Shown: positions 47,500 to 60,078 of the stretch, piece after piece | Layout: each line of letters opens with the position of its first letter | Position numbering within the stretch: the stretch's first letter is position 1 | NCBI GenBank assembly: GCA_017554145.1 | Contig: JAFZIZ010000006.1 | Span: 1 to 64,000, forward strand | Direction of reading: 5' to 3' | Length of the DNA: 64,000 nucleotides | Origin: Prevotella sp. | Lineage (GTDB): Bacteria; Bacteroidota; Bacteroidia; Bacteroidales; Bacteroidaceae | Translations under genes and position numbers: made by a program | Notes under the pieces: model-generated | What the model was told of the DNA's origin: nothing | What the model saw: the letters and a program-made list of their open reading frames with translations, nothing else | Databases searched by the model: none

Positions 47500-48506
47500 G
47501 ATATTCCTTGCTATACATACTCGCCTTCATTCCCCTATTCTTCTGTAGTTGTGTCAACGAAGAGGAACGACCTGATACGCCTTCAGGCAACTTTGAGGCA
47601 CTCTGGCAGATTATCGATGAGCATTATTGTTTCTTCGACTATAAGCAACATGAATATGGACTGGACTGGCAAGAGGTATACCATCAATACAAGATGCGCA
47701 TCAACGATAACATGAAAGAGACTCAACTCTTTGAAGTATTGTGTGACATGCTTTCTGAGTTGCGCGACGGCCATGTCAATCTCTCTACCAGTTATGACTA
47801 CGGACGTTATTGGACATGGCAAGAGGCTTTTCCCAAGAACTTTAGCGACAGTCTGTCACGTATCTATATGGGAACCGACTACAAGATTGCCAGTGGTTTA
47901 CGATATAAGGTACTGGACGATAATATCGGCTATATCCGATACGAGTCTTTCCAAGACCCTATCGGCGAGGGCAATCTGGACGATGTCCTTTCCTACCTTA
48001 TCCTCTGTCGAGGACTTATCATCGACATCCGTAACAATGGCGGAGGTGACTTGACCAATGCAGAAAAACTGGCAGCCCGCTTTGTCAGTGAGAAGACGCT
48101 GGTGGGTTATCTGCAACATAAGACAGGAAAAGGGCATAATGACTTCAGCAATCTGGAAGCACAATACTTAGAGCCATCCAGCAATATGCGATGGCACAAG
48201 CCTGTATGTGTCCTGACCAACCGCTCCGTATTCAGTGCCGCTAACGAATTTGTATCTATGATGCATGCACTCCCTCAAGTCAAGATTGTGGGCGACCATA
48301 CTGGTGGAGGTTCTGGTATGCCTATGAGTAGCAGTCTGCCCAACGGATGGAATGTCAGATTTTCTGCTTGTCCGATGTACGATAAGGACAAACAACAGAC
48401 GGAGTTCGGTATAGAACCGGATCATAACGTACAATTAAAGGATGACGACACGGCAAAAGGTATCGATACTATTATCGAGGCAGCAAGAAAACTTTTAACC
48501 GAATAA
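47496..48506 (+). CDS. S41 family peptidase, lipoprotein
   Basis: 336 residues. Lipobox FFCSC (Cys about residue 19) predicts a lipid-anchored periplasmic or surface protein. The S41 (C-terminal processing peptidase) core is seen in GYIRYESFQDPIGEGNLDDV, RGLIIDIRNNGGGDLTNAEK (20) and the nucleophile region NRSVFSAANEF (Ser about 252). GDHTGGGSGMPMSSSLPNGW follows. There is no clear PDZ domain, so it is a short, PDZ-less S41 enzyme. The ATGA overlap couples it to the barrel protein gene. It ends just before the tRNA promoter. Confidence 0.9.
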   Translation: MRYSLLYILAFIPLFFCSCVNEEERPDTPSGNFEALWQIIDEHYCFFDYKQHEYGLDWQEVYHQYKMRINDNMKETQLFEVLCDMLSELRDGHVNLSTSYDYGRYWTWQEAFPKNFSDSLSRIYMGTDYKIASGLRYKVLDDNIGYIRYESFQDPIGEGNLDDVLSYLILCRGLIIDIRNNGGGDLTNAEKLAARFVSEKTLVGYLQHKTGKGHNDFSNLEAQYLEPSSNMRWHKPVCVLTNRSVFSAANEFVSMMHALPQVKIVGDHTGGGSGMPMSSSLPNGWNVRFSACPMYDKDKQQTEFGIEPDHNVQLKDDDTAKGIDTIIEAARKLLTE

Positions 48507-48538
48507 TTTGTTTTTTTCCTTTTTTAATCGTACCTTTG
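48507..48538 (+). promoter_or_regulatory. tRNA-Leu/tRNA-Val promoter
   Basis: TTTG (48507-48510), 20-base spacer, TACCTTTG (48531-48538), ending 10 bases before tRNA-Leu. Confidence 0.75.
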
Positions 48539-48548
48539 CAAACCATTA

Positions 48549-48630
48549 GCGCCTGTGGCGGAATTGGTAGACGCGCTAGACTTAGGATCTAGTGTCTCAC
48601 GACGTGCAGGTTCGAGTCCTGTCAGGCGCA
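48549..48630 (+). tRNA. tRNA-Leu (anticodon TAG)
   Basis: 82 nt. Acceptor GCGCCTG (48549-48555) pairs with CAGGCGC (48623-48629), discriminator A. Anticodon stem CTAGA/TCTAG with loop CTTAGGA, anticodon TAG (reads CUA). A long variable arm marks Leu. The T-loop is normal (TTCGAGT). No CCA is encoded. Confidence 0.95.
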
Positions 48631-48642
48631 CATCAACAACAA

Positions 48643-48716
48643 GTCGGCATAGCTCAGCTGGTTAGAGTATCACCTTGACATGGTGGGGGTCGTTGGTCCG
48701 AATCCAACTGTCGACA
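48643..48716 (+). tRNA. tRNA-Val (anticodon GAC), integration target
   Basis: 74 nt. Acceptor GTCGGCA (48643-48649) pairs with TGTCGAC (48709-48715, one G-U), discriminator A. Anticodon stem CACC/GGTG, loop TTGACAT, anticodon GAC. The T-stem is GTTGG/CCAAC and the loop reads TCCGAAT, so position 55 is C instead of the nearly universal T. The 3' 20 bases are the left att repeat of the mobile element. No CCA is encoded. Confidence 0.92.
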
Positions 48717-48717
48717 C
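48697..48717 (+). repeat. attL core (21-bp direct repeat)
   Basis: 21 bp starting TCCGAATCCAACTGTCGACA, identical to 56771-56791. It covers the 3' part of tRNA-Val, leaving a complete tRNA at the left end. Confidence 0.95.
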
Positions 48718-48724
48718 GGTAGAT

Positions 48725-48750
48725 AAGTGGCTGATTTTCAGTCACTTTTT
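48725..48750 (+). terminator. Terminator after the tRNA operon, inside the element
   Basis: AAGTGGCTGA (48725-48734), loop TTT, TCAGTCACTT (48738-48747), then TTT. It lies 9 bp past the tRNA-Val end, on element DNA, so the element brings its own stop for tRNA transcription. Confidence 0.75.
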
Positions 48751-48775
48751 ATTTTTGCCCGTTTTAAGGTTAAAT

Positions 48776-48797
48776 TTTTGATGAACTTTTGATGAAC
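48776..48797 (+). repeat. Left arm-type repeats, two 11-bp copies
   Basis: TTTTGATGAAC at 48776-48786 and 48787-48797, followed by TTTTTGTT. The same unit is present three times at the right end (56633-56665). Confidence 0.93.
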
Positions 48798-48804
48798 TTT
48801 TTGT

Positions 48805-48835
48805 TTTGTAATCTCAGATAATCTATGTATATTTG
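48805..48835 (+). promoter_or_regulatory. Integrase promoter
   Basis: TTTG (48805-48808), 19-base spacer, TATATTTG (48828-48835), 28-base leader. It lies directly beside the left arm sites, so integrase binding could repress it. Confidence 0.65.
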
Positions 48836-48863
48836 CACCATAAATCAGTTAAATATCTAAGTT

Positions 48864-50402
48864 ATGGCAAAGTTAAATTTTAGTCTCAGGACTACAAAGA
48901 CCGATGGAAAGAGTAATCTTTATATCTTGGTTAATCGTCCAAAGTTTGGTGTTAGATGGATGTTGAACACTGGAATCAAAGTTAGTGTATCTAATTGGAA
49001 CGATTCTTTTAAATCTGCAAAGGCTTTGAGTAAGTATTTGGCAACTGAGGAAGGAAAGAGCGTACATGAGAAAACGGATTTATGCGCGCAAGTTGTTGAG
49101 GCTTATTTTTCCGACATGAAGCAGGGAGAGCAGGCAGACAAAGGAGAACTGGAGAGTCTTATTAATGACATCGTAAACACTGACCTCAAAGAGAAACGAG
49201 AGGAACTTGAAGAACTCCGTCAGGATGAACGCAAGATTAAGGCAGAGCAGGAACTACACCGTCTTGGGGAAGTGTTATCCTATTATAACACCTTCTTTGA
49301 TGGAATCAAAAACGGCAGCGTCCGACATGGAGATAACAAGCGTTACTCAGAGTCCACCATTTCAGCATGGCGAACCTTTGGGGAACACCTCAAAGGCTAC
49401 CTGATGGCAGAACACAAAGAACACTTACATTTTGATGACATCACAACGAGAACGGCAACGTCTTTTGTTACCTATTGCGAGCGTGAGGAACTTATGAAAG
49501 GAACTATCGGACAGTTAGTAAACCATTTCCGCAAGTTGTGTAATATTGCAGCAGAGGAAGGAATAAACTCAAACGCAGTCTCTCTTAGGATATGGAAAAG
49601 CCACGATCAAAAGGAATCTGACAAGCGCGCAGAGATTGCGCTTACTGATGGAGAAGTGGACGCGCTTTATAACTTGTCCCTCACTGGCTACAATGAGAAA
49701 TGCCGCGACTTGTGGATGCTTGGTTACTTTAGCGCGCAGCGTGTAAGTGATTACTCCAAGTTTGGAAAAGACAATTTTGGAGTTAATCCTGATGGTACAC
49801 CTGTTATTCGTGTACGTCAGAAAAAGACTAATATTGAGTTAGATGTACCTATCTTAGACGAGCGCGTTTTTGAAATTTGCGAGAAATACAAATATCATTT
49901 TCCATCTTTAGGACGTGATGCAATAAACCGAGGTATCAAGGAAGCGTGCAAGATTCTGAGCGAGTCAGTGCCTACCCTGAAAGAATGGGAAGTTACTCTA
50001 CTATCCAAGAAGGAGCGCGACAAAGAGCGTTGGTTTATCGAGACGAGAAAGCGAGTGGCAGAAGGTGAGAAGTTGCACGGAGAGGAAAGCAAGCGTTATC
50101 GCAAGTGCCTGGAGTATGCTAACGAACACGACTCAGGCGAGTTTCTTTATAAGCGAGACTACAAAGGGGAAGTTATCCGCCAACGATGGGAACTTGTCTC
50201 TTGTCACACTACAAGGCGCAGCATGATAACAAACTTGCATAGAACTGGCTTGTTATCCGACAGAGAAATAATGAGCATTTCAGGACACAAGACTTTAAAC
50301 TCTTATGAGAAATACATGAAGGTTAAGAAAGAAGAGAGAGCAGCGTCCATCTATGAGAAGATGAAGAAAGCAAAGGAAATCCAATTAAAGAAGGAGGCAT
50401 AA
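48864..50402 (+). CDS. int: Tyrosine recombinase (integrase)
   Basis: 512 residues, long for the family. The N-terminal arm-binding domain (residues 1-60: SLRTTKTDGKSNLYILVNR, WMLNTGIKVS) is followed by a charged helical linker (about 95-140), a SAM-like core-binding domain (about 150-240) and the catalytic domain. Active-site residues are the Arg in FSAQRVSDYSKF (about 292), CHTTRRS (His/Arg about 447-450), GHKT and the nucleophile Tyr in SYEKYMK (about 483). An insert of about 70 residues before HxxR (SKKERDKERWFIETRKRVAE, 20) is unusual. It should catalyse integration and excision at tRNA-Val. The next gene starts after one base. Confidence 0.94.
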   Translation: MAKLNFSLRTTKTDGKSNLYILVNRPKFGVRWMLNTGIKVSVSNWNDSFKSAKALSKYLATEEGKSVHEKTDLCAQVVEAYFSDMKQGEQADKGELESLINDIVNTDLKEKREELEELRQDERKIKAEQELHRLGEVLSYYNTFFDGIKNGSVRHGDNKRYSESTISAWRTFGEHLKGYLMAEHKEHLHFDDITTRTATSFVTYCEREELMKGTIGQLVNHFRKLCNIAAEEGINSNAVSLRIWKSHDQKESDKRAEIALTDGEVDALYNLSLTGYNEKCRDLWMLGYFSAQRVSDYSKFGKDNFGVNPDGTPVIRVRQKKTNIELDVPILDERVFEICEKYKYHFPSLGRDAINRGIKEACKILSESVPTLKEWEVTLLSKKERDKERWFIETRKRVAEGEKLHGEESKRYRKCLEYANEHDSGEFLYKRDYKGEVIRQRWELVSCHTTRRSMITNLHRTGLLSDREIMSISGHKTLNSYEKYMKVKKEERAASIYEKMKKAKEIQLKKEA

Positions 50403-50403
50403 C

Positions 50404-51135
50404 ATGGCATACCCTGTTAGTATTGATTATTGCAAGAAAATTGAGGCGGCACGGCATTTTTTATTTAGCCTACCTTATAAGGAGAGCCACCCCGAAAATT
50501 TGAGTTACGAAGAAGTGCAACATCAAGACGGTGTACTTTTGTCGAGTGTTTGGATAGAAAATGTGAGGCAAGAATATTATTCACAAGAAAGTAACCTTAT
50601 TATATTTAAAGGTATTTTCTCAGACATCTTAAATAATTCCTATGTTGAAGATGGAACGACCAGAAAGTGGAATGAATCAAAAGAAGGTTTACTTTACGAC
50701 AAAACTGCCATTATCAAACGTCTGGAATATGAAGGTAACACTAAGATGCAAATAGATTTCTATCTATCGCAAGTTTACAAGTTGCAGCAGACCATATTAG
50801 AGCGCATGGATGCAGCGCGTATTCTTATAGATTGGATAGAATACCCCCAAAAATATGAAAAAGTCGAATGGCTAAGTATGTTTGATCCAAACAGGACGGA
50901 TGACAAGGATTTCCCAATAGAAATAACACAGATTTTTGAAAGCCCTTGCAAATGTTATGAATTCTTTAATCCTCCACGCAAACTTAGCCCTTCTGGATGG
51001 GGAAAAAGATTTTCTCTTTATCGAGATAAAGCGACAAATCAACGTGGAGATATTGGTACAATATTTGATAAACTTGTAAAACTTCACTTTTTGGAAGAAA
51101 AATCTAAAAGCACTTTTGAAAAGTATGTGAGTTAA
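50404..51135 (+). CDS. Unknown protein of the element
   Basis: 243 residues, no recognised domain. It is hydrophilic with a likely helical middle section (FYLSQVYKLQQTILERMDAA, about 121-140), no signal peptide and no TM helix. The single Cys pair is in SPCKCYEFF. It begins one base after the integrase stop, so it is co-expressed, perhaps as an accessory to recombination or a regulator. An intrinsic terminator follows (51142-51166). Confidence 0.75.
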   Translation: MAYPVSIDYCKKIEAARHFLFSLPYKESHPENLSYEEVQHQDGVLLSSVWIENVRQEYYSQESNLIIFKGIFSDILNNSYVEDGTTRKWNESKEGLLYDKTAIIKRLEYEGNTKMQIDFYLSQVYKLQQTILERMDAARILIDWIEYPQKYEKVEWLSMFDPNRTDDKDFPIEITQIFESPCKCYEFFNPPRKLSPSGWGKRFSLYRDKATNQRGDIGTIFDKLVKLHFLEEKSKSTFEKYVS

Positions 51136-51228
51136 TTTTTTAAAGCATCCATTTGGGTGCTTTTTTATTTTATCTTACTTTATTTATTAACTTTTTGTGA
51201 GTATGTTTGCGGCTACGTGAGTTAATTT
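51127..51228 (+). promoter_or_regulatory. Direct repeats upstream of the HTH gene
   Basis: GTGAGTTAATTT occurs at 51127-51138 and 51217-51228, with a weaker relative (GTGAGTATGTTT) near 51197. They may be operator sites for the HTH protein. A -7-like TACTTTTG is at 51261-51268. Confidence 0.4.
51142..51166 (+). terminator. Terminator of the integrase operon
   Basis: AAAGCATCC (51142-51150), short loop, GGGTGCTTT, then a T-run to about 51166. Confidence 0.75.
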
Positions 51229-51294
51229 GCGTCTAACAAAATGCATATCTGTTAATTATTTACTTTTGCATCAAACAATTTAAATTTGTAAGAT

Positions 51295-51570
51295 ATGCGA
51301 GAAGTTACAATGTTTGTGCAAGAAGTTTTGCCAGTGTTTGAGAACTGGATAAGAACGACGATTAGCGACGAAGTTAGCAAGGTACTGGAGGCAGACCGCC
51401 AGAAACAGAAGCCATCCAAGAAGTACACCCGAAAGGAAGTTAGCAAGATGGCAAGCATAAGTTTGCCTACGTTATGGCAGAAAACCAAAAACGGAGAAAT
51501 CAACGCAACCCATATCGGGCGAAGGGTACTGTATGACGAGGCAGAAGTTAAGCGCTTTTTAGGTCAGTAA
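51295..51570 (+). CDS. Excisionase-like helix-turn-helix protein
   Basis: 91 residues. The C-terminal part (KKYTRKEVSKMASISLPTLW, 20, then INATHIGRRVLYDEAEVKRF) fits the MerR-like excisionase/helix_turn_helix_17 fold used by Bacteroidetes mobile elements. The N-terminal half is a likely amphipathic oligomerisation helix. It probably directs excision with the integrase or regulates the replication gene downstream. Its own -7 box TACTTTTG lies 26 bases upstream. Confidence 0.8.
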   Translation: MREVTMFVQEVLPVFENWIRTTISDEVSKVLEADRQKQKPSKKYTRKEVSKMASISLPTLWQKTKNGEINATHIGRRVLYDEAEVKRFLGQ

Positions 51571-51602
51571 TCTAACGCAAGAACGAAAACGAACGAACAA
51601 CA

Positions 51603-52541
51603 ATGCAGGATAACCACTATATAATATTCGCCCTACCTATGCTTAAATTCATATACACAATGTCGCCCCCTAAATTCTTTGACTTGGTGTTACATTATAG
51701 CATAAGCATAGAAGCCAAGAAAATCCAAGTGAAGGATGACACAGAAGCATATCGCCAGTTACTTCTGTGTGCCAGAAGTCGTCCTAAAGAGGTGCCTTCT
51801 TTCCTTATAGAAGTTATAGAGGAAATCTATGGAGATGATTATAAAGATAGTATAGGTGAAATGTGGGCGGTAGATACCTTCGATATGGACGGATGGGGTA
51901 CTAAAGATTTTATCGAAGAATTTAAAAAACTGGACTGTGACATTACTAATGATGATGTGGTAGAGTGGCATAGATACAGGATTGCAGGGAATAGGTTAGG
52001 ATATACTATCCATAATTATAGAAACGTAAAAAACAACGCAGCCCAATATATAAATATGTATGGTAGTGGGTGTGTGCCTGTCGCCATTCCCAAGTCTATC
52101 TTTTTAAGTCTGAAAGACAAAAATCTTAAAGAGTATGATAAAGTGAAGTGGGCTACATACATGGCTATCCGTAGCCTTGCCAAAAACAATGTGGCTTTGA
52201 CGACATCATCAGTTATCATGTGGCGCAGTGTAGGGGCTAAGAACTTGCAGGAGTACAAGAACGCACAGAGGGATAAGCGTATAAAGGCGATTATCGAGAA
52301 ATGGCATACAAGGAGGCAGTTCCAGAAGGTAATAGCCGACCTTATTACACACAACCTTATAACCAAATGCTTGTATAACAACCGAATTGCAGTTAGCGCA
52401 TCTATTACGCAGCCCCAAGAGTTTGCCGAGGCGGTTGCAACGCTTATAAGGAAGATATATACCAAGCACAATGCCGACAAAGTGAGACAAAAAGAAAACA
52501 CCATTAAAAGCCTACTGGATGAGGCTCTTAACACTTATTAA
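51603..52541 (+). CDS. Candidate replication initiator of the element (unassigned)
   Basis: 312 residues, basic in the second half and hydrophilic. I do not recognise the family with confidence. ATG 51639 is an alternative start. The C-terminal segment (KRIKAIIEKWHTRRQFQKVI, 20, then ADLITHNLITKCLYNNRI) looks like winged-helix DNA-binding helices. It is followed immediately by 12-bp iterons and an AT-rich tract (52564-52645), the layout of a rep gene with its origin, so I infer a replication role. It follows the HTH gene by 32 bp. Confidence 0.7.
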   Translation: MQDNHYIIFALPMLKFIYTMSPPKFFDLVLHYSISIEAKKIQVKDDTEAYRQLLLCARSRPKEVPSFLIEVIEEIYGDDYKDSIGEMWAVDTFDMDGWGTKDFIEEFKKLDCDITNDDVVEWHRYRIAGNRLGYTIHNYRNVKNNAAQYINMYGSGCVPVAIPKSIFLSLKDKNLKEYDKVKWATYMAIRSLAKNNVALTTSSVIMWRSVGAKNLQEYKNAQRDKRIKAIIEKWHTRRQFQKVIADLITHNLITKCLYNNRIAVSASITQPQEFAEAVATLIRKIYTKHNADKVRQKENTIKSLLDEALNTY

Positions 52542-52563
52542 GAAATGTACATCTTTAATAAGG

Positions 52564-52645
52564 TGTACAAAGGAATGTACAAAGGAGTGTACAAAGGAAT
52601 GTGCAAGATATAAATAAAAATATAATATAAAAATATAATATGAAA
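52564..52645. repeat. Iteron array and AT-rich tract (candidate origin)
   Basis: TGTACAAAGGA(A/G) at 52564-52575, 52576-52587 and 52588-52599, with a degenerate fourth copy to about 52608, then an almost pure A/T stretch with repeated AAATATAATAT. Iterons plus AT-rich DNA beside a putative rep gene suggest an origin of replication. Confidence 0.6.
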
Positions 52646-52882
52646 ATACAGGATAATATATTACACGCAAAATTAAATTTTGACGTGATAGCGAAAAAAA
52701 GACATAGTTTTTACGTTGACTATCTTCTTAACTTATATTGCTGCAATATGCAGTTAAACACCCCTTCTGTTATACACCATCCAGAAGGAGAAACTAAGAA
52801 GGATATAAATATAGGTGTTGTAAAGAAAAATTACACCCTTCCAGATACGGAGAGAAATACTAATAATATGTGGTATCAATGA
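52640..52882 (+). CDS. Small unknown protein of the element
   Basis: 80 residues, hydrophilic, no recognised motif; Lys-rich N-terminal half, two adjacent Cys (LYCCNMQ). It starts right at the end of the AT-rich tract and is co-directional with its neighbours. It is supported mainly by context. Confidence 0.45.
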   Translation: MKIQDNILHAKLNFDVIAKKRHSFYVDYLLNLYCCNMQLNTPSVIHHPEGETKKDINIGVVKKNYTLPDTERNTNNMWYQ

Positions 52883-52929
52883 GTTTGGTACGAGAGAGAC
52901 AACAGGATAACATTTTAACAAGATAATAA

Positions 52930-53394
52930 ATGAAAAAGTCAGAACTTACACCCCAAGAAAAAATTTGCATTATAGGTACTATGCTACTTGGTAAAGAATA
53001 TCTGCCAGTGGCTTATGCTCTAAGCCATCCCAATGCTAAAACTAAGTCAGAAACAAGTCTAACGGTTATGCGCTCCAGATGGTGGGCTTCGCCTCTATCC
53101 CTGTCTTTTAGACAAGAAATGCAGGATAAGATAGCACGTATAGCAGTTGTTAAAGGCAATGACCTTACAACTAAAGAGGGTATTATCTCGCAACTTGTTA
53201 CGGCTACACAAGAGACAAGCGGCAAGGATAGTGTTAGTGCCTTGCAGACCTTGGCTAAATTGCAAGGATTTGACAAACCAGATAAAGACGAAAACGAAAC
53301 AGAACACCGTAAATATATCCTACCATATCGCACTAAATGCCGATTCTGCAAACTTATGGAACTATATGTAAAAATTCTAAACGAACAATCTTGA
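52930..53394 (+). CDS. Terminase-small-subunit-like protein
   Basis: 154 residues. The pattern of a terminase small subunit is suggested: a helical N-terminal DNA-binding part (LTPQEKICIIGTMLLGKEYL), a segment like the domain edge SPLSLSFRQEMQDKIAR, and the C-terminal module TTKEGIISQLVTATQE followed by SVSALQTLAKLQGFDKPD, which resembles the conserved ALxxLxKxxG end of Terminase_2 proteins. Satellites of the PICI type often carry a TerS to redirect packaging. A basic Cys-containing tail (RTKCRFCKLMELYVK) follows. No large subunit is present. It could also be another small DNA-binding protein. Confidence 0.55.
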   Translation: MKKSELTPQEKICIIGTMLLGKEYLPVAYALSHPNAKTKSETSLTVMRSRWWASPLSLSFRQEMQDKIARIAVVKGNDLTTKEGIISQLVTATQETSGKDSVSALQTLAKLQGFDKPDKDENETEHRKYILPYRTKCRFCKLMELYVKILNEQS

Positions 53395-53399
53395 TTGCA

Positions 53400-53606
53400 A
53401 TGATAAAAGAGAATGGTAACACGAGTATTAACCACTTTAACGGCAAGTGTCTTGATTGCCCAGATTGTTGGTGCCTGGAGTTCCATCACCGTACCGAGGT
53501 GTGGACTGGCTACTGCCACCTGTTGCGCCAACGTGTAAACGGCAACGACCTTTGCCACCTACCAAGGCAGCCCCCAGAGCCTCAACAACTGGAATTGTTC
53601 TTATAA
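53400..53606 (+). CDS. Cys-rich miniprotein with C-terminal clamp-binding-like motif
   Basis: 68 residues from ATG 53400. Cysteines in CLDCPDCWCLEF and GYCHLL, LCHL, with nearby His, could bind zinc. The C-terminus ends QPPEPQQLELFL, which fits the bacterial beta-clamp-binding pattern QLxLF. I infer a possible replication or repair accessory. The start overlaps nothing; it follows the TerS-like gene by 5 bp. Confidence 0.65.
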   Translation: MIKENGNTSINHFNGKCLDCPDCWCLEFHHRTEVWTGYCHLLRQRVNGNDLCHLPRQPPEPQQLELFL

Positions 53607-53630
53607 GTTTAACATAAAAAAAGATTGAAT

Positions 53631-53885
53631 ATGGATACTATTTTATTTACAAGCAAAGGCGAAGAAACAAGATTTAATGCCCTAAAAAGAGAGCATAAAG
53701 AAAATTTTGAGCGTACAGAAATGGAACGAGAAGCAGAGTGCGCACTAAAAGGCACAGAGTTTACACCACAAGACTATGAGCCTATCTCTGACGATGTGGT
53801 ACTGGCTACTATCAGAGCAGGGTGGCGCAGTCCTCTTGATAAAGCGTTTGAGCGTAAAAGTAAAAAAGAAGGTTGGAACAAATAA
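53631..53885 (+). CDS. Small acidic/basic unknown protein
   Basis: 84 residues from ATG 53631 (a TTG at 53625 is the alternative). Charged, likely helical (REHKENFERTEMEREAECAL, 20), without a recognised domain. Next to the Cys-rich gene (24-bp gap) and 11 bp before the next one, so probably one operon. Confidence 0.6.
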   Translation: MDTILFTSKGEETRFNALKREHKENFERTEMEREAECALKGTEFTPQDYEPISDDVVLATIRAGWRSPLDKAFERKSKKEGWNK

Positions 53886-53896
53886 ACTAATTATAT

Positions 53897-54583
53897 ATGA
53901 AACAGTCTAACAACCCCCTTCCTACTATGCCAAAAGTGATGCATGACGAAGAAGCAGAACGAAGAATAAGAGAACGTTTGCAAAGGCAAGAAGATGGCTT
54001 GCGCAACATCGTTAAGAGGCTAAGAAGCCAAGGCGCACCCATCCAGACGGCAAACGATTTGCAGAAGATGACACCCTCATTTATACGTGAGGGTATCAAG
54101 ACACAAAAAGAAAAGCAACTTTCTGGCGATTTTATTCCGCAGTCTATAAGGCAGAGTTATACGGCACAGTTCGCCCAGATGGAGAGGCAACTAATTCCAG
54201 ATGCTCAAACCTTGCAAGATATTTTGCACGACCTTCCTGTTACTATCCACATGGATAATGATGCAAACGTCTTGCATTTCGACTACGAAGAACTGGAAGC
54301 ATATATCGCCAAGCAGTCAGAGGTAGCCATACCAGAGGAGATGCAAGAATACTTTTATAAGGTACAAGGTATCTGTAAATCATGGCACGACCTTATAGAA
54401 TGGTGTAGCCAGAACAATATTACACTGCCTACGATGAGGCTTGTACGCTATCTTACAGGCGAGAACGGCAGATTTGCACAACCGCCACACCTTGATGATA
54501 CGTGCATCTTGTCACTTGATCCAGAGGACTTCTTTACGATGTTTAAGTACGGTACTATTGGAACGATTAAAAAGGAAGGATAA
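53897..54583 (+). CDS. Unknown protein of the element
   Basis: 228 residues. The N-terminal third is a strongly charged helix (HDEEAERRIRERLQRQEDGL, 20, about residues 16-35). The rest is mixed and ends in FTMFKYGTIGTIKKEG. No signal, TM or known domain. It is the last gene before the antisense-RNA region; no plus-strand T-run terminator is seen. Confidence 0.7.
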   Translation: MKQSNNPLPTMPKVMHDEEAERRIRERLQRQEDGLRNIVKRLRSQGAPIQTANDLQKMTPSFIREGIKTQKEKQLSGDFIPQSIRQSYTAQFAQMERQLIPDAQTLQDILHDLPVTIHMDNDANVLHFDYEELEAYIAKQSEVAIPEEMQEYFYKVQGICKSWHDLIEWCSQNNITLPTMRLVRYLTGENGRFAQPPHLDDTCILSLDPEDFFTMFKYGTIGTIKKEG

Positions 54584-54680
54584 TATCTTCGTTTAACTTG
54601 GTTGTTGTTCGTGTTTTCGTGTTCGGTGCGGTGGTGCGTGTTAGTGCGTATCTGCCGCACTTTATTTAATGCCGATAAAT

Positions 54681-54747
54681 AAAAAGGTAGCAACCTTCGC
54701 AGGCTACCACCTTAATCAAACTTAAAGTAACCTATATGGTTACGATG
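54681..54747 (-). ncRNA. Candidate antisense small RNA, about 67 nt
   Basis: Minus promoter: CTTG (54779-54782), 20-base spacer, TACCTTTG (54751-54758). The predicted RNA has a 5' stem-loop GTAACC-ATATA-GGTTAC (54727-54743), a single-stranded linker TTTAAGTTTGATTAA, and a terminator hairpin GGTAGC...GCTACC (54686-54708) followed by five U. The T-run exists only on the minus side, and no minus CDS lies upstream, so a dedicated RNA is the simplest explanation. It is antisense to the start of the 27-codon ORF and, through the 17-bp repeat, complementary to the serine-recombinase leader. Confidence 0.6.
54715..54731 (+). repeat. 17-bp direct repeat, copy 1
   Basis: ATCAAACTTAAAGTAAC, identical to 54949-54965. 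Both copies lie shortly before an ATG. Confidence 0.95.
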
Positions 54748-54819
54748 TGGCAAAGGTACTACTTTTCCATGATATTACCAAGTATCTTTTGTATGGTTTT
54801 AATGCTTGTGTGGTTTTAA
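54736..54819 (+). CDS. Hydrophobic 27-residue peptide (candidate small toxin-like ORF)
   Basis: ATG at 54736, TAA at 54817-54819. The product has a short aromatic/basic start (MVTMWQRYYF) and then one hydrophobic span (SMILPSIFCMVLMLVWF) able to cross a membrane. Its leader carries the 17-bp repeat 4 bases before the ATG, and the antisense RNA covers its 5' end. The arrangement resembles type I toxin-antitoxin loci. No convincing plus promoter is seen (AACCTTCG at 54692 is weak), so expression is unproven. Confidence 0.4.
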   Translation: MVTMWQRYYFSMILPSIFCMVLMLVWF

Positions 54820-54913
54820 TCTTGAAAAGCCTTTATTTTCACACATTTATATAACCCTATATGTACGGTTATAATCTAAAAGGTTAAAAACATACAAAAT
54901 ATTAGTAATATGT

Positions 54914-54944
54914 ATTGCAGTATCAATAATTATTTGTATATTTG
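54914..54944 (+). promoter_or_regulatory. Serine-recombinase promoter
   Basis: ATTG (54914-54917), 19-base spacer, TATATTTG (54937-54944). The 17-bp repeat (54949-54965) forms the leader before ATG 54972. Confidence 0.6.
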
Positions 54945-54948
54945 CAGT

Positions 54949-54965
54949 ATCAAACTTAAAGTAAC
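54949..54965 (+). repeat. 17-bp direct repeat, copy 2 (recombinase leader)
   Basis: ATCAAACTTAAAGTAAC, 6 bases before the recombinase ATG, where it would cover the ribosome entry site. Confidence 0.95.
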
Positions 54966-54971
54966 ATAGAT

Positions 54972-55634
54972 ATGGAAAAACAAGCAATTATTTACGCACG
55001 TGTGAGTACGGTGGCACAGAACACCGACCGCCAAGTTATTGATCTGAAAGAGTATGCCAATAGCAACGGCTACAATCTTCTTGAAGTATTTACGGAACAA
55101 ATCTCTGGAGCGAAGAAGAACGCAGAGCGTGAAGCGTTGACAGATGCAATTAATTACGCACTATCAAACCAGTGTACTATCCTGTGCAGCGAGTTAAGCC
55201 GTCTGGGTAGAAATATAGACGAGGTTTTAAAGTCCGTTATCTATTGCAAGGAACATGGCATTAATGTTTTCTTCCAGAAGGAACAGTTTAGTATCTTCAA
55301 CCAAGACGGCAAGCCCCATCCCTTCTTAATGATTTTTATTTCAGTCCTTGGAACTTGTGCAAGTCTGGAACGTGAGGCAATCCGCTTCCGTATGAAGTCA
55401 GGGTATGATAACTACATTCAACATGGTGGCAAGGTAGGCAGGAAAGAAGGTTTTAAATACTCTTTAGAGGACTATACGAAGAAATACCCAGAACTTGTGC
55501 AGGACTTACAGGAGAAGCAAAAGGGCGCAAGTGGCAAACTATATTCTGTTAGAGCATTGGCGAACAGGTACGATGTAAACGCAAGTACAGTGCAAACAAT
55601 AACAAAGATACTGAAAGGAGGTACAAAATGTTAG
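54972..55634 (+). CDS. Serine site-specific recombinase (resolvase/invertase family)
   Basis: 220 residues. The catalytic domain begins IIYARVSTVAQNTDRQVIDL (20; nucleophile Ser about 12). EQISGAKKNAEREAL and CSELSRLGRNIDEVL are conserved. The long E helix (LEREAIRFRMKSGYDNYI) and a C-terminal helix-turn-helix (YSVRALANRYDVNASTVQTI, 20) complete a small resolvase. It may resolve multimers of a replicating circular form or invert DNA. Its stop overlaps the next miniprotein start. Confidence 0.92.
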   Translation: MEKQAIIYARVSTVAQNTDRQVIDLKEYANSNGYNLLEVFTEQISGAKKNAEREALTDAINYALSNQCTILCSELSRLGRNIDEVLKSVIYCKEHGINVFFQKEQFSIFNQDGKPHPFLMIFISVLGTCASLEREAIRFRMKSGYDNYIQHGGKVGRKEGFKYSLEDYTKKYPELVQDLQEKQKGASGKLYSVRALANRYDVNASTVQTITKILKGGTKC

Positions 55635-55750
55635 GTATTTATCTATGGTGTATTCTCTTAATCATCATTGCCTGTTGCATACTCCCTTGGTGGTTTCTGC
55701 CAGTGGTGGTGTTATCTGCTATCTTTTCAATGTTTCTTTCTAAAAAATAG
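55628..55750 (+). CDS. 40-residue membrane miniprotein A
   Basis: ATG at 55628 overlaps the recombinase 3' end; TAG at 55748-55750. Two hydrophobic helices flank a PWWFLP turn, and the end is basic (SKK). It is almost entirely hydrophobic. It is paired with a second miniprotein 12 bp downstream. Holin-like, toxin-like or regulatory roles are all possible; no family is recognised. Confidence 0.6.
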   Translation: MLGIYLWCILLIIIACCILPWWFLPVVVLSAIFSMFLSKK

Positions 55751-55754
55751 GAGG
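55749..55754 (+). promoter_or_regulatory. Shine-Dalgarno-like site for miniprotein B
   Basis: AGGAGG, 7 bases before ATG 55762, is unusual in this genome, where such sites are otherwise absent. It decides the start at 55762 over ATG 55758. Confidence 0.6.
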
Positions 55755-55761
55755 TTGATGT

Positions 55762-55884
55762 ATGATAAAGGCGGCTTTATTCGTGTGGGCTATCTTAATG
55801 GTGGTTTTCCTTTTTGTCATGTGTCCTGTTGCCTTCTGGGTTATTATTATACTTGCAGCCATCATCCAGTTTGGGTGTAAATAA
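55762..55884 (+). CDS. 40-residue membrane miniprotein B
   Basis: ATG at 55762, TAA at 55882-55884. The same design as miniprotein A: two hydrophobic spans around a central CPVAFW turn, ending FGCK. The shared length, spacing and pattern suggest a duplicated or cooperating pair. The transcript ends at the hairpin at 55908-55934. Confidence 0.6.
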   Translation: MIKAALFVWAILMVVFLFVMCPVAFWVIIILAAIIQFGCK

Positions 55885-55907
55885 CAGGGTATATCTTCTA
55901 AAGTTTA

Positions 55908-55934
55908 GGTGTAGCAGTCTGTTACACCTTTTCT
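55908..55934 (+). terminator. Terminator after the twin miniprotein genes
   Basis: GGTGTA (55908-55913) and TACACC (55923-55928) form a stem, followed by TTTTCTTTTG. Confidence 0.65.
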
Positions 55935-56125
55935 TTTGCTCTTTCCTGTCTTTCCATCACCCCCTACGATACACCCCCCCCCCTTATTTATGCAAGGTTG
56001 GCACATTCATTCCTACTCAAAAATTTTTTTCTCCCAAAATTCGTTAAAGGTGTTAAAGCGCACTATTTAGACATCATTCTATAAGGCTATACAAAGAGCA
56101 TAGGCGGCAAAGGACTTCTGAAACG

Positions 56126-56175
56126 AAAACACTAAAATCCAAGTATCGACTATTTATAAAACACTAAAATCCAAG
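56126..56175 (+). promoter_or_regulatory. Twin 18-bp direct repeats (candidate operators)
   Basis: AAAACACTAAAATCCAAG at 56126-56143 and 56158-56175, 32 bp apart (about three helical turns), ending 10 bp before the -33 box of the next promoter. Confidence 0.6.
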
Positions 56176-56185
56176 GTTAAAGCGG

Positions 56186-56217
56186 TTTGGCGGCATATTG
56201 AATAATGGCTACCTTTG
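56186..56217 (+). promoter_or_regulatory. Promoter of the 65-residue gene
   Basis: TTTG (56186-56189), 20-base spacer, TACCTTTG (56210-56217), 21-base leader to ATG 56239. Confidence 0.65.
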
Positions 56218-56238
56218 CAGAAACAAAATACAAGGACT

Positions 56239-56436
56239 ATGGAGAAATATAAAAGTATTGAAGAGTATCTAAAGGCGAGTGATTTAACCAGAGAGGACAT
56301 GAAAGATTTAATCCTTCGCAGTTCTCTTGACCTTCTGGGAGATTGCGCACATAACTTTGAAGGTGATGCGGCTATGACTGAAAGAGTTGCGCAGCCTCTA
56401 ATATTCTTTAATGACATATTGGATAACGTTAAATAA
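56239..56436 (+). CDS. Small unknown helical protein
   Basis: 65 residues from ATG 56239. Acidic, helical (EEYLKASDLTREDMKDLILR, 20). It has a strong own promoter with operator-like repeats upstream. No recognised family. It could be a regulator or an anti-defence-type small protein; nothing in the sequence decides. Confidence 0.65.
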   Translation: MEKYKSIEEYLKASDLTREDMKDLILRSSLDLLGDCAHNFEGDAAMTERVAQPLIFFNDILDNVK

Positions 56437-56528
56437 CTCCTTATACAAAAGGTTATTAATATGTGTCTTTTGCCGTATCTGTCTGGGAAGATGGGTGCGG
56501 TTTTTAAATACGAAAAATATCGGTTTTC

Positions 56529-56559
56529 TTTGCAGTTTCAAAGAATCTTCGTATCTTTG
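56529..56559 (+). promoter_or_regulatory. Promoter of the right-end ncRNA
   Basis: TTTG (56529-56532), 19-base spacer, TATCTTTG (56552-56559). Confidence 0.6.
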
Positions 56560-56562
56560 CAT

Positions 56563-56636
56563 CGTTCCTTTATAAAGGACACAAAAAAAGATATTTAACT
56601 GATTGCTCTTGCCTGAGAAGGTAAGGGCATTTTTTT
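56563..56636 (+). ncRNA. Candidate small RNA at the right end, about 74 nt
   Basis: A full promoter precedes it, no ATG-initiated ORF lies inside, and it ends with a 9-bp stem GCTCTTGCC-TGAGAA-GGTAAGGGC (56605-56628, two G-U pairs) and a T-run. The 14-nt palindrome TCCTTTATAAAGGA lies at 56566-56579. It sits against the arm repeats, so it may link regulation with recombination. Confidence 0.5.
56605..56636 (+). terminator. Terminator of the right-end ncRNA
   Basis: Stem 56605-56613 / 56620-56628 and T-run 56630-56636, which merges with the first arm repeat. Confidence 0.7.
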
Positions 56637-56665
56637 GATGAACTTTTGATGAACTTTTGATGAAC
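56633..56665 (+). repeat. Right arm-type repeats, three 11-bp copies
   Basis: TTTTGATGAAC at 56633-56643, 56644-56654 and 56655-56665, in the same orientation as the two left copies. Confidence 0.93.
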
Positions 56666-56770
56666 TTTTTGTTAATCTTCCAAATTCGCAAAAAATCTCA
56701 AAAATGCCAAAAGCCTTATAAACAGGACGTTTCGTGATTTTGCAAAGTTAAATAAAATTAAATATCCCTC

Positions 56771-56791
56771 TCCGAATCCAACTGTCGACAC
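56771..56791 (+). repeat. attR core (21-bp direct repeat)
   Basis: Identical to 48697-48717; only this tRNA fragment remains at the right end. Confidence 0.95.
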
Positions 56792-56793
56792 AA

Positions 56794-56832
56794 AAAAGGG
56801 GCAGGTTTACCATTATGGTACCTGCCCCTTTT
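56794..56832 (-). terminator. asd terminator
   Basis: AAAAGGGGCAGGT (56794-56806) and ACCTGCCCCTTTT (56820-56832) form a 13-bp stem. It sits 12 bp past the asd stop and 2 bp inside attR's right flank. Confidence 0.85.
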
Positions 56833-56844
56833 AATATATTTAGA

Positions 56845-57858
56845 TCACTTTACATTGCCTACTTTGATTAAATACTCTCCAATCTGAACAGCATTGAGGG
56901 CAGCACCCTTACGAATCTGGTCACCAGAGAGCCAGAAGGTGAGACCATTCTCGTCTGAGAGGTCCTTGCGGACACGACCAACATAGACATCATCCTTACC
57001 TGCCGTCTCCAAAGGCATCGGATAAACGAGGTTAGCAGGGTCGTCAACCAATGTACAACCAGGGGCAGCAGCAATAGCCTGCTGTGCCTCTTCTACACCG
57101 ATAGGACGCTCTGTCTCAATCCATACACTCTCAGAGTGGGAACGTAACGAACTGACACGGACACACATGGCAGAACACATGGCATCGGTATGCATAATCT
57201 TACGAGTCTCGTTGAACATCTTCATCTCCTCCTTGGTATAGCCATTCGGTTGGAACACGTCAATCTGAGGAATTACGTTATATGCCAACTGGTGGGCAAA
57301 CTTCTTGATGGTCTTTACCTCACCCTCTTCTACCATTTCCTTATATTGCTGTTGCAGTTCAGCCATAGCAGCAGCACCTGCACCTGAAGCACTCTGATAA
57401 GAAGCAACGTGGATGCGCTTGATATGACTAAGTTTCTCCAATGGCTGCAATACCACTACCATCATGATAGTCGTACAGTTCGGATTAGCAATGATTCCAC
57501 GAGGACGATTGAGAGCATCCTCCGCATTACACTCAGGAACAACCAAGGGCACATCATCATCCATACGGAAAGCCGAGCTATTGTCAATCATCACAGCACC
57601 ATATTTGGTGATGGTCTCTGCAAATTCCTTTGAGGTTCCTGCACCAGCTGACGTAAAGGCGATATCAACATCCTTGAAGTCGTCATTGTGCTGGAGCAAC
57701 TTCACTTCAATCTCCTTTCCTTTGAAGGTGTACTTTCTGCCTGCACTGCGTTCTGAGCCAAACAGCACAAGTTCGTCCATCGGGAAATTTCTCTGGTCGA
57801 GGATTCTCAAAAACTCCTGACCTACGGCACCAGAGGCACCAACAATTGCTACTTTCAT
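56845..57858 (-). CDS. asd: Aspartate-semialdehyde dehydrogenase
   Basis: 337 residues. It reduces aspartyl phosphate with NADPH in lysine/threonine/methionine synthesis. The start [19 protein letters not shown] (NADP-binding), the catalytic Cys in [14 protein letters not shown] (about residue 130) and the His in [14 protein letters not shown] are conserved. It is alone next to the mobile element. The minus promoter -7 box TACCTTTG is at 57894-57901, 35 bases from the ATG, in a shared region with the divergent antiporter gene. Confidence 0.96.
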
Positions 57859-57893
57859 AAGTCTTATTCTACTCTTAATTCATATTTTGCGTG

Positions 57894-57931
57894 CAAAGGT
57901 AGCACTTTTTTTGCAAAAATGCGTATCTTTG
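57894..57931. promoter_or_regulatory. Compact divergent promoters asd / antiporter
   Basis: Minus TACCTTTG (57894-57901) and plus TATCTTTG (57924-57931), 22 bases apart. The plus box excludes the ATG at 57919 and supports a start at 57940. Confidence 0.6.
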
Positions 57932-57939
57932 CACTTGAA

Positions 57940-60078
57940 ATGGCATACTTTGCGCAATATTTTCCGATTACGAATCCGACGTTGATATTCTTCGTCGTAT
58001 TATTAATCATTTTGTTTGCCCCGATTATCATGGGTAAACTGCGCATCCCGCATATCATCGGAATGGTGTTGGCAGGTATGCTGATTGGTAAATATGGACT
58101 GAATATCTTAGAGCGTGACTCCTCCTTTGAACTATTCGGAAAGGTAGGTCTGCTCTATATCATGTTCCTTGCGGGTCTGGAGATGGACTTAGAGAGTGTG
58201 AAAAAGAATTCCAAGAGATTTCTGATCTTCGGATTGCTCACCTGTTTGGTACCACTCTTCATGACGTATTTCATGGCCATCTGGTTACTGAACTATTCTT
58301 CTCAAGCATCCTTCCTATTAGGTTGCATCATGGCCTCAAACACCTTGATCGCTTATCCTATCATTGGACGTTACGGACTCCAGCGTAATTCAAGTGTCAT
58401 GTTGAGTGTTGGGTCATCTATGATTTCCCTTTTCCTGGCTCTATTGATGCTGGCAGCACTTGCAGCCTCCTACGGAGAAGATGCAGGTTTTGGCTTCTGG
58501 ATATTATTCCTCTTAAAATTTACAGCATTCTGTTGTGTTAGTATTTGGCTGATACCTAAACTCGCCCGTTATTTCCTACGCCGCTATTCCGACTCTGTGA
58601 TGCAGTTTATCTTTGTGCTTGCCATCATGTTCCTCAGTGCAGCAGCATCTGAGGCAGTAGGCGTGGAAGGTATCGTAGGTGCATTCACCTCAGGATTGAT
58701 TCTCAACCGTTACATTCCCCATGTGTCTCCATTGATGAACCGCATCGAGTTTATCGGTAATGCACTCTTTATCCCCTATTTCCTGATTGGTGTAGGTATG
58801 CTCATCAACGTAGGCTCTCTCTTCACCGGTCTGCATATGTTGTGGATCGTACTACTTATCGCATTCTTCGGTACTTTCGGAAAAGCTGTAGCTGCCTACT
58901 TGTCGAGTCTGTTGTTCCGTTTACCTCAGTCAGCCGGTAATATGATGTTCGGACTGACCAGTGCCCATGCTGCCGGTGCTATTGCGATGGTAATGGTAGG
59001 TATGCAATTAGAAGTTAGCCCTGGAGTCTTTTTAGTCAATGACGAGATACTGAATGGTGTTGTTATCATGATTCTTGTCACCTGCGTTATCAGTACTATG
59101 ATGACAGAACATGCAGCCCAACAGATTATCCTACAGAAGAAAACCCATCTGAAGACGGATGATTCCCAACGAGACGATGAGAAGATTCTCCTCTGCGTAA
59201 AATATCCCGAGATTGCTCCTCAGTTATTGGAACTTGCCATCATGGTACGTAATCAGAAGCTGAATCGTGGTATTGCAGCATTAAATGTAGTCTATGACGA
59301 TACTAACTCTGCTGTCAACCGAGAAAGTGGTTTGCGCCTGTTAGAACAACTACAGCAACAGGCAAGTGCCAGTGATGTAAAGATGCAGACACAGGTACGC
59401 CTTGCCACCAATATCGCCAATGGTATCAAACATGCCTTCCGTGAGTTCGGTGGGTCAGAGATTATCATGGGAATGCACGTTCATACTGAGGCGAATCCTA
59501 AGTTCTGGGGCGATTTCATCCAAAGTCTTTACAATGGACTAAACCGACAAATCGCATTGATTCGTTTCGTCCAACCACTGAACACCTTACGTCGTATTCA
59601 AGTGGCAGTACCTTCCCGTGCAGAATTTGAACCAGGATTCCATCGATGGTTGGAACGTCTGAGTCGTATGGCTGGTAACCTTGACTGTCGTATCGAGTTT
59701 CATGGACGTGACGAGAGTTTGGTGCTCATTCGAGAATATATCAATAACCTTCACCCTGGGGTACGTGCGGAATATACCTCTATGGCACACTGGAACGAAC
59801 TGCCTAAGTTAGCGGAAAACATCAATGAAGACCATCTCTTTGTTGTCATCACAGCACGTAAGGGTACTATCTCCTATAAGAACGCACTGGAGCGACTGCC
59901 TAACGAATTGATGCAACATTTCTCTGGCAAGAACCTCATGATTATCTTCCCTGATCAACATGGTGATGCGAAAGACAATACCATGACCTTCACGGAGGCA
60001 CAACACCAGGAGGAAAGCAGTATCTATGTTACCATTGCCCGATGGATTAATGCCCATCGGTTTCATCAACCTCATTAA
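57940..60078 (+). CDS. Cation:proton antiporter (CPA2/KefB-like) with C-terminal soluble domain
   Basis: 712 residues from ATG 57940 (the ATG at 57919 precedes the -7 box). About 12 TM helices fill residues 10-395, with LRIPHIIGMVLAGMLIGKYG (20) and VEGIVGAFTSGLILNRYIPH (20) typical of the family. GLTSAHAAGAIAMVMVGMQL follows. The C-terminal half (about 430-705) is soluble with repeated USP-like features (LLCVKYPEIAPQLLELAIMV, 20), rather than a TrkA-N/RCK domain. It exchanges Na+ or K+ for H+; ion specificity is unclear. lolD-like ATPase follows after 15 bp. Confidence 0.92.
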   Translation: MAYFAQYFPITNPTLIFFVVLLIILFAPIIMGKLRIPHIIGMVLAGMLIGKYGLNILERDSSFELFGKVGLLYIMFLAGLEMDLESVKKNSKRFLIFGLLTCLVPLFMTYFMAIWLLNYSSQASFLLGCIMASNTLIAYPIIGRYGLQRNSSVMLSVGSSMISLFLALLMLAALAASYGEDAGFGFWILFLLKFTAFCCVSIWLIPKLARYFLRRYSDSVMQFIFVLAIMFLSAAASEAVGVEGIVGAFTSGLILNRYIPHVSPLMNRIEFIGNALFIPYFLIGVGMLINVGSLFTGLHMLWIVLLIAFFGTFGKAVAAYLSSLLFRLPQSAGNMMFGLTSAHAAGAIAMVMVGMQLEVSPGVFLVNDEILNGVVIMILVTCVISTMMTEHAAQQIILQKKTHLKTDDSQRDDEKILLCVKYPEIAPQLLELAIMVRNQKLNRGIAALNVVYDDTNSAVNRESGLRLLEQLQQQASASDVKMQTQVRLATNIANGIKHAFREFGGSEIIMGMHVHTEANPKFWGDFIQSLYNGLNRQIALIRFVQPLNTLRRIQVAVPSRAEFEPGFHRWLERLSRMAGNLDCRIEFHGRDESLVLIREYINNLHPGVRAEYTSMAHWNELPKLAENINEDHLFVVITARKGTISYKNALERLPNELMQHFSGKNLMIIFPDQHGDAKDNTMTFTEAQHQEESSIYVTIARWINAHRFHQPH

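What the first reader, a model, noticed from the sequence alone, without database searches (positions are those of the whole stretch)
54681..54972. Antisense RNA that could control both a 27-residue hydrophobic peptide and the neighbouring serine recombinase
Seen: a minus-strand promoter (CTTG-N20-TACCTTTG), a 6-bp perfect stem-loop, a linker and a terminator whose T-run exists only on the minus side, with no minus CDS. The RNA covers the start of a hydrophobic 27-codon ORF at 54736. Its linker and stem contain the complement of ATCAAACTTAAAGTAAC, which is also the leader of the recombinase mRNA, ending 6 bases before its ATG. Known: type I toxin-antitoxin loci pair small membrane peptides with antisense RNAs. 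Inference: one RNA could repress a toxin-like peptide in cis and the recombinase in trans, tying element stability to recombination.
Basis: partly seen in the sequence, partly recalled or inferred. Interest (0 to 1): 0.8.

Follow-up and report, generated by a model that had tools for sequence, protein, structure and literature searches.

The report
Antisense RNA controlling a mobile-element recombinase
A small mobile element in a Bacteroidales-like genome appears to encode a short RNA that can stick to the start of the element's own DNA-recombinase message and should keep that enzyme low; one related element keeps the same arrangement with a different but again matching sequence, which suggests that the pairing matters.

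Summary
On the minus strand at 54681-54782 lie a Bacteroidetes-type promoter, a 6-bp stem-loop, a linker and a terminator hairpin; the predicted RNA carries the exact complement of 17 nt of the serine-recombinase leader (54949-54965). It has the same divergent RNA gene, with different stem and linker letters that again match its OWN recombinase leader. Own pairs form strong duplexes (-27.6 and -28.1 kcal/mol; 0 of 1000 shuffled leaders each); swapped pairs do not (-11.8, -8.4). In both elements the match begins 4-6 nt after the recombinase -7 box, i.e. near the predicted transcript start, and reaches the start codon. I conclude that this is probably an antisense RNA that represses recombinase translation. 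The arrangement was detected in 2 of 65 recombinase loci scanned; no transcript has been shown. It works like OrzO/IstR-type divergent antisense RNAs, with a recombinase instead of a toxin as target: a new variant of a known kind.

The parts
54681..54747 (-). predicted antisense RNA (about 65-70 nt): 5' stem-loop, linker, terminator hairpin
   Evidence: fold of 54672-54752 minus z -3.75, 0 of 200 shuffles as stable; counterpart in G556 z -6.42
54751..54782 (-). promoter of the antisense RNA, CTTG-N20-TACCTTTG
   Evidence: same type and spacing in G556 (TTTG-N20-TACCTTTG, read); consensus TAnnTTTG/TTTG from PMC7366714 (passages)
54727..54743 (-). 5' stem-loop GTAACC-ATATA-GGTTAC; its 3' arm begins the target-pairing stretch
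54715..54731 (-). 17-nt stretch of the RNA complementary to the recombinase leader
54681..54713 (-). intrinsic terminator hairpin with T-run on the minus side
54937..54944 (+). -7 box TATATTTG of the recombinase promoter (no TTTG/CTTG -33 element at the usual spacing)
54949..54971 (+). predicted recombinase mRNA 5' leader; 54949-54965 is the target, pairing resumes over ATATGG at the start codon
   Evidence: transcript start inferred
54972..55634 (+). serine recombinase of resolvase/invertase type, 220 aa
   Evidence: PF00239 8.5e-29; phrog_125 DNA invertase 9e-35; PDB relatives Sin and gamma-delta resolvase
54787..54820 (+). tandem 17-bp motif TTTTGTATGGTTTTAAT / GCTTGTGTGGTTTTAAT between the two promoters; nearly identical in G556; possible recombinase binding sites (inferred)
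54883..54899 (-). inverted third copy of the motif (2 mismatches)
54736..54819 (+). 27-codon ORF of the finding; judged not a gene
   Evidence: no plus promoter, not conserved in G556
48697..56791 (.). the whole integrated element, exact 21-bp direct repeats at both ends, in tRNA-Val

Best explanation
A small integrated mobile element carries, divergently from its serine-recombinase gene, a gene for a roughly 67-nt antisense RNA. The RNA has a 5' stem-loop, a single-stranded linker and an intrinsic terminator. The linker and the 3' arm of the stem pair with nearly the whole 5' leader of the recombinase mRNA up to its start codon, so the ribosome should be kept off (or the duplex cut) and the recombinase kept low. 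Shown by sequence: the RNA gene anatomy, the complementarity, and its maintenance with changed letters in a second element. Inferred: that the RNA is made, that pairing represses translation, and that this restrains recombination by the element.
For: Exact 17-nt complement plus 6 more pairs over the start codon. In G556 the same layout with different letters: own duplexes -27.6 and -28.1 kcal/mol (0 of 1000 shuffled leaders reach either), cross duplexes -11.8 and -8.4 (219 and 722 of 1000 reach these); net cofold gain -20.5 and -16.4 for own pairs, -4.6 and -3.3 for crossed pairs. Leader/antisense alignment scores within an element are 20.5 and 18.0; between elements leader/leader 12.0, antisense/antisense 9.5, mixed 11.5 and 6.5. 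The repeat begins after 4 intervening nt (window) and 6 (G556) downstream of the recombinase -7 box, i.e. near the predicted transcript start (and the sequences). Both RNAs fold far better than shuffles, z -3.75 and -6.42, with different stem letters. In a scan of 65 distinct recombinase loci the two rank first and second for a leader repeat upstream, each above all 60 shuffles of its leader. Among 13 gene starts of the element the recombinase scores 19.5 against the RNA, the next best 9.5.
Against: No expression data. Only two elements show it; it was not detected in the other 63 of 65 loci scanned, among them G734, whose recombinase is 66% identical. G876 (65%) was not in that scan; its contig ends about 259 nt upstream of the recombinase and shows no such RNA gene in that stretch, so it is inconclusive. 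The promoter pattern alone is expected 0.55 times per window by chance. The G556 terminator has a poor T-run and was missed by the strict scan. An unrestricted duplex-energy scan did not separate the two from other loci. The recombinase promoters lack a clear -33 element, so their start sites are inferred.
Confidence: 0.77

Rival explanations
1. The repeats are DNA sites (operator, or accessory binding sites of the recombinase) and the RNA-like features are incidental.
For: Serine resolvases bind repeated sites beside their own gene (recalled); a tandem plus inverted 17-bp motif really lies in this intergenic region.
Against: That motif is nearly identical between the two elements while the leader repeat has changed letters; the leader repeat starts near the predicted transcript start and lies within both predicted RNAs; promoter, two hairpins and terminator surround it in both elements. 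A repressor that changes its specificity together with its operators is not excluded.
Confidence: 0.1
2. Type I toxin-antitoxin locus: the RNA represses the 27-residue hydrophobic peptide, with or without the recombinase.
For: The RNA covers the start of the ORF; the peptide is hydrophobic by eye (sequence).
Against: No plus-strand promoter box found; ORF absent in G556.
Confidence: 0.04
3. The RNA controls the recombinase operon chiefly for the sake of the two 40-residue hydrophobic peptides encoded right after it (55628-55750, 55762-55884): a toxin-antitoxin system with the recombinase as passenger.
For: The first peptide ORF overlaps the recombinase stop codon and both look strongly hydrophobic.
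Against: In the G556 ORF list no such pair follows the recombinase (ATG-started ORFs of 35 aa or more on that strand); the peptides match nothing in PHROGs or NCBIfam at E 0.01 (Pfam was not run on them).
Confidence: 0.05
4. Leader duplication of no function: a piece of the recombinase leader was copied upstream and kept alike by gene conversion.
For: Short duplications are common (recalled); only two elements are known.
Against: The copy sits inside a complete RNA gene in both elements, and the similarity ends near the predicted transcript start.
Confidence: 0.04

Closest known systems
OrzO-zorO (and IstR/tisAB, OhsC/shoB) divergent antisense RNAs
   Same: Short RNA with its own promoter, encoded divergently from its target, with about 18-21 nt of complementarity; PMC3919570 (passages) reports 18 nt for OrzO with the zorO 5' UTR and that 15 continuous nt suffice.
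   Different: Target is a 220-residue serine recombinase on a mobile element, not a small membrane toxin; the pairing reaches the start codon; the host looks like a Bacteroidales.
RNA-OUT of IS10/Tn10 and other antisense RNAs of transposase genes
   Same: Mobile element uses an antisense RNA to keep its own DNA-moving enzyme low (PMC4555090, passages).
   Different: RNA-OUT overlaps its target start on the opposite strand (recalled); here the RNA gene lies about 230 bp away and pairs through a repeated stretch; the enzyme class differs.
RteR of CTnDOT
   Same: Small RNA encoded by a Bacteroides mobile element that regulates the element (PMC9299015 and PMC7366714, passages).
   Different: RteR acts on the tra operon; no sequence comparison with RteR was made here.
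Tn3/gamma-delta/Sin resolvase res regions
   Same: Serine recombinase related to Sin and gamma-delta, with repeated motifs between its promoter and a divergent promoter; the res layout itself is recalled.
   Different: The divergent gene here is an RNA gene, not a transposase; crossing-over at these motifs is untested.

Membership tests
Divergent ('unconventional') antisense sRNA regulators such as OrzO/IstR/OhsC | RNA gene with own promoter and terminator, divergent from the target | tested here: met
   by sequence only; the promoter pattern alone is not significant and the G556 T-run is poor
Divergent ('unconventional') antisense sRNA regulators such as OrzO/IstR/OhsC | About 15-21 nt complementarity to the target 5' UTR | tested here: met
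   17 contiguous plus 6 pairs in the window; 30 pairs with interruptions in G556
Divergent ('unconventional') antisense sRNA regulators such as OrzO/IstR/OhsC | RNA is expressed and represses the target | not testable with these tools
   no RNA data or bench work
Type I toxin-antitoxin system | Target encodes a small hydrophobic toxin, conserved with the RNA | tested here: not met
   27-codon ORF absent in G556 and without promoter box; the downstream 40-aa pair also not seen behind the G556 recombinase
Small serine recombinase (resolvase/invertase) | Resolvase N-terminal domain with active-site serine | tested here: met
   PF00239 over residues 5-153; S12 invariant in the three-way alignment; its role as nucleophile is recalled
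Small serine recombinase (resolvase/invertase) | Acts on defined crossover sites | not testable with these tools
   repeated motifs seen; no inverted or resolved product observed
Known Rfam RNA family | Match to a covariance model | tested here: not met
   no match in 54681-54782 up to E = 5 in the scan of 48000-58000

The most novel reading that the evidence does not exclude
The RNA is an incompatibility or immunity determinant of a mobile element: acting in trans it silences the recombinase of any incoming element with the same leader, and element lineages diverge by changing RNA and leader together, as plasmid copy-control RNAs do (recalled). Recombinase control, not replication control, would then set which elements can share a cell.
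Probability: 0.2. Interest if true: 0.8.

Novelty: new variant of a known kind. Interest (0 to 1): 0.55.

Why it matters
Antisense control of transposases is well known, and divergent antisense RNAs of toxins are known. In the searches made here (listings, plus passages of PMC4555090 and PMC9299015) I found no described antisense RNA for the leader of a serine recombinase; the nearest report is antisense transcription enriched in COG1961 in one strain (PMC4555090). Two natural elements with orthogonal RNA/leader pairs give a ready-made swap experiment. If right, it adds a post-transcriptional layer to the control of DNA rearrangement by Bacteroidales mobile elements.

Tried and rejected
DNA search with the RNA gene: 6 of 399 genomes of the family matched, but apart from the own genome all matches lie within query positions 1-41, the promoter side, so I do not take them as relatives. 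The 17-mer in viral contigs gave 11 stretches; a tblastn of 14 element proteins found none of them in those loci, so they are taken as chance. Plasmids: nothing by DNA; by protein best 44% (capped at 5000 records). Phages by protein best 35% (49 records). The tandem motif in viral contigs: none.

An unrestricted RNAduplex scan of upstream regions (69 loci, best 30 printed) was too permissive: L084 and L087 scored lower than both real ones, L085 and L036 about as low as the window. I then changed the measure to gapped local alignment of leader against upstream DNA, a choice made. There 65 distinct loci remained after dropping duplicates and loci with under 150 nt upstream; window 19.5 (best of 60 shuffles 13.0) and G556 15.5 (10.0) rank first and second. 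Of the 12 rows printed, four others (L080, L094, L030, L088) also exceed their shuffles, by 1 to 1.5, none with promoter plus hairpin. The strict promoter-terminator scan found 1 of 65 (the window; G556 missed); the relaxed one found 4 of 65 (G556, L029, L011, L090; the window was missed, I think because its stem has too few G-C pairs for that rule), and the last three have repeat scores of only 9.5-11.0.

The count of 5 leader differences, all with a changed partner (of 17 positions paired in both), is largely forced by the pairing condition and is not used as independent proof. A covariance model was not built: two diverged sequences align poorly. Alignment A2 used wrong coordinates and was discarded.

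Full report
Setting. The window lies in an unnamed assembly (G000) that looks like a Bacteroidales (inferred from its promoters and from the named relatives of the recombinase). The finding sits in an 8.1-kb integrated element bounded by exact 21-bp repeats at 48697-48717 and 56771-56791, inside tRNA-Val next to tRNA-Leu. It carries a tyrosine integrase, an HTH_17 protein and a serine recombinase of the resolvase type; 7 of the 10 element proteins scanned have no Pfam match.

Observation. The 17-mer ATCAAACTTAAAGTAAC occurs at 54715 and 54949 and nowhere else in the window, even with three mismatches. The minus promoter fits the Bacteroides consensus (PMC7366714, passages), but such a pattern is expected 0.55 times in this window by chance. 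The predicted RNA folds into a 5' stem-loop and a strong terminator, z -3.75.

A second element. Relatives of the recombinase are common (54 of 399 family genomes at E 1e-25; 32 of 398 genus genomes at E 1e-40), but only one with a comparable upstream region is close: G556, 71% identical. Its element lies near the same tRNA-Leu/tRNA-Val pair and the same chromosomal gene as in the window (aspartate-semialdehyde dehydrogenase, name recalled). Of its other genes mainly integrase and HTH protein match the window's, and the exact att core was not found there, so its ends are not defined. Upstream of that recombinase and divergent from it is the same layout: TTTG-N20-TACCTTTG, stem-loop, linker, terminator hairpin, fold z -6.42. 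Most stem, linker and terminator letters differ from the window's. Yet the linker again matches the leader of its own recombinase (AAACATTTAAGA and beyond).

Test of pairing. With leaders cut near the predicted transcript start, own duplexes have -27.6 and -28.1 kcal/mol, and neither is reached by any of 1000 dinucleotide-shuffled leaders; crossed duplexes have -11.8 and -8.4, reached by 219 and 722 of 1000. With the folds of the single RNAs subtracted, the gain is -20.5 and -16.4 for own pairs and -4.6 and -3.3 for crossed pairs. Leader and antisense copy are more alike within an element (20.5, 18.0) than leader with leader (12.0), antisense with antisense (9.5) or the mixed pairs (11.5, 6.5) between elements. 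It rests on one comparison of two elements.

RNA or DNA level? The repeat begins after 4 intervening nt downstream of the recombinase -7 box in the window and 6 in G556, i.e. near where transcription should start, and it extends to the start codon. A DNA operator has no obvious reason to respect these borders. In the same intergenic region a tandem motif, TTTTGTATGGTTTTAAT and a second copy, is almost unchanged between the elements, and the window has an inverted third copy; these are better candidates for protein sites, possibly of the recombinase itself (inferred).

Spread. In 65 distinct recombinase loci with enough upstream DNA, the RNA gene plus a matching leader was detected only in the window and G556 (see Tried and rejected for the choice of measure and for near misses). 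G734, in the same clade of the tree, shows none. G876, also in that clade, came after the scan; its contig ends about 259 nt upstream, where only a different arrangement is seen. Tree: 67 sequences, support 0.47 for these four together, 0.95 with L015. So the RNA may be an invention of this lineage or may have been lost in relatives.

The peptide. The 27-codon frame has no TAnnTTTG box upstream on its strand. In G556 the corresponding ATG is followed by TGA. The tail of the frame coincides with the conserved tandem motif, which explains its weak similarity. I reject it as a gene. Two other hydrophobic 40-residue ORFs directly behind the recombinase (55628-55750, 55762-55884) are better peptide candidates, but no such pair is seen behind the G556 recombinase.

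Mechanism. Most likely the RNA is made steadily from its consensus promoter, pairs first by its unpaired linker, then opens its 5' stem, covering the short leader up to the start codon of the recombinase. Ribosome exclusion, RNase III cleavage or both would follow. For scale, OrzO has 18 nt of complementarity, of which 15 continuous nt suffice (PMC3919570, passages). None of these steps has been observed here.

Comparison and novelty. It works like the divergent antisense RNAs of some toxin genes, and has the purpose of RNA-OUT-like RNAs of transposases. A gut metatranscriptome study reports antisense transcription enriched in COG1961, the recombinase class related to the invertase Pin, in one strain (PMC4555090, passages); in the passages seen it names no such RNA. 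My literature searches cover only open-licence PMC papers, and I read passages of four papers, none in full.

Noticed in passing
window 55628-55750 and 55762-55884 (+): Two strongly hydrophobic 40-residue ORFs directly behind the recombinase, the first overlapping its stop codon; possible small membrane peptides of the same operon.
   Followed up: partly
window 54787-54820 and 54883-54899: Tandem 17-bp motif plus inverted copy between the two divergent promoters, the tandem part nearly unchanged in G556; looks like recombinase or regulator binding sites. A 10-nt inverted repeat (TATAACCCTA/TACGGTTATA, 54850-54873) lies between them.
   Followed up: partly
window 48762-48805 and 56619-56673: TTTTTGATGAACTTTTGATGAAC repeats near both element ends, possible arm-type sites of the tyrosine integrase; a 16-bp inverted pair lies at 48843-48858 and 56589-56604.
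   Followed up: no
L012, L020, L027, L028, upstream of the recombinase: Several recombinases at about 45-51% identity share CAAATNAATCTATAA just upstream, perhaps part of their crossover site.
   Followed up: no
window 52563-52606: Three direct repeats at 12-bp spacing (GTGTACAAAGGA) just after the 312-aa gene at 51603, iteron-like.
   Followed up: no
L039, L042: Two more distant recombinases have a divergent promoter about 95 bp upstream with a short repeat of the leader inside or beside it; not an RNA gene of this kind by the scans used.
   Followed up: partly
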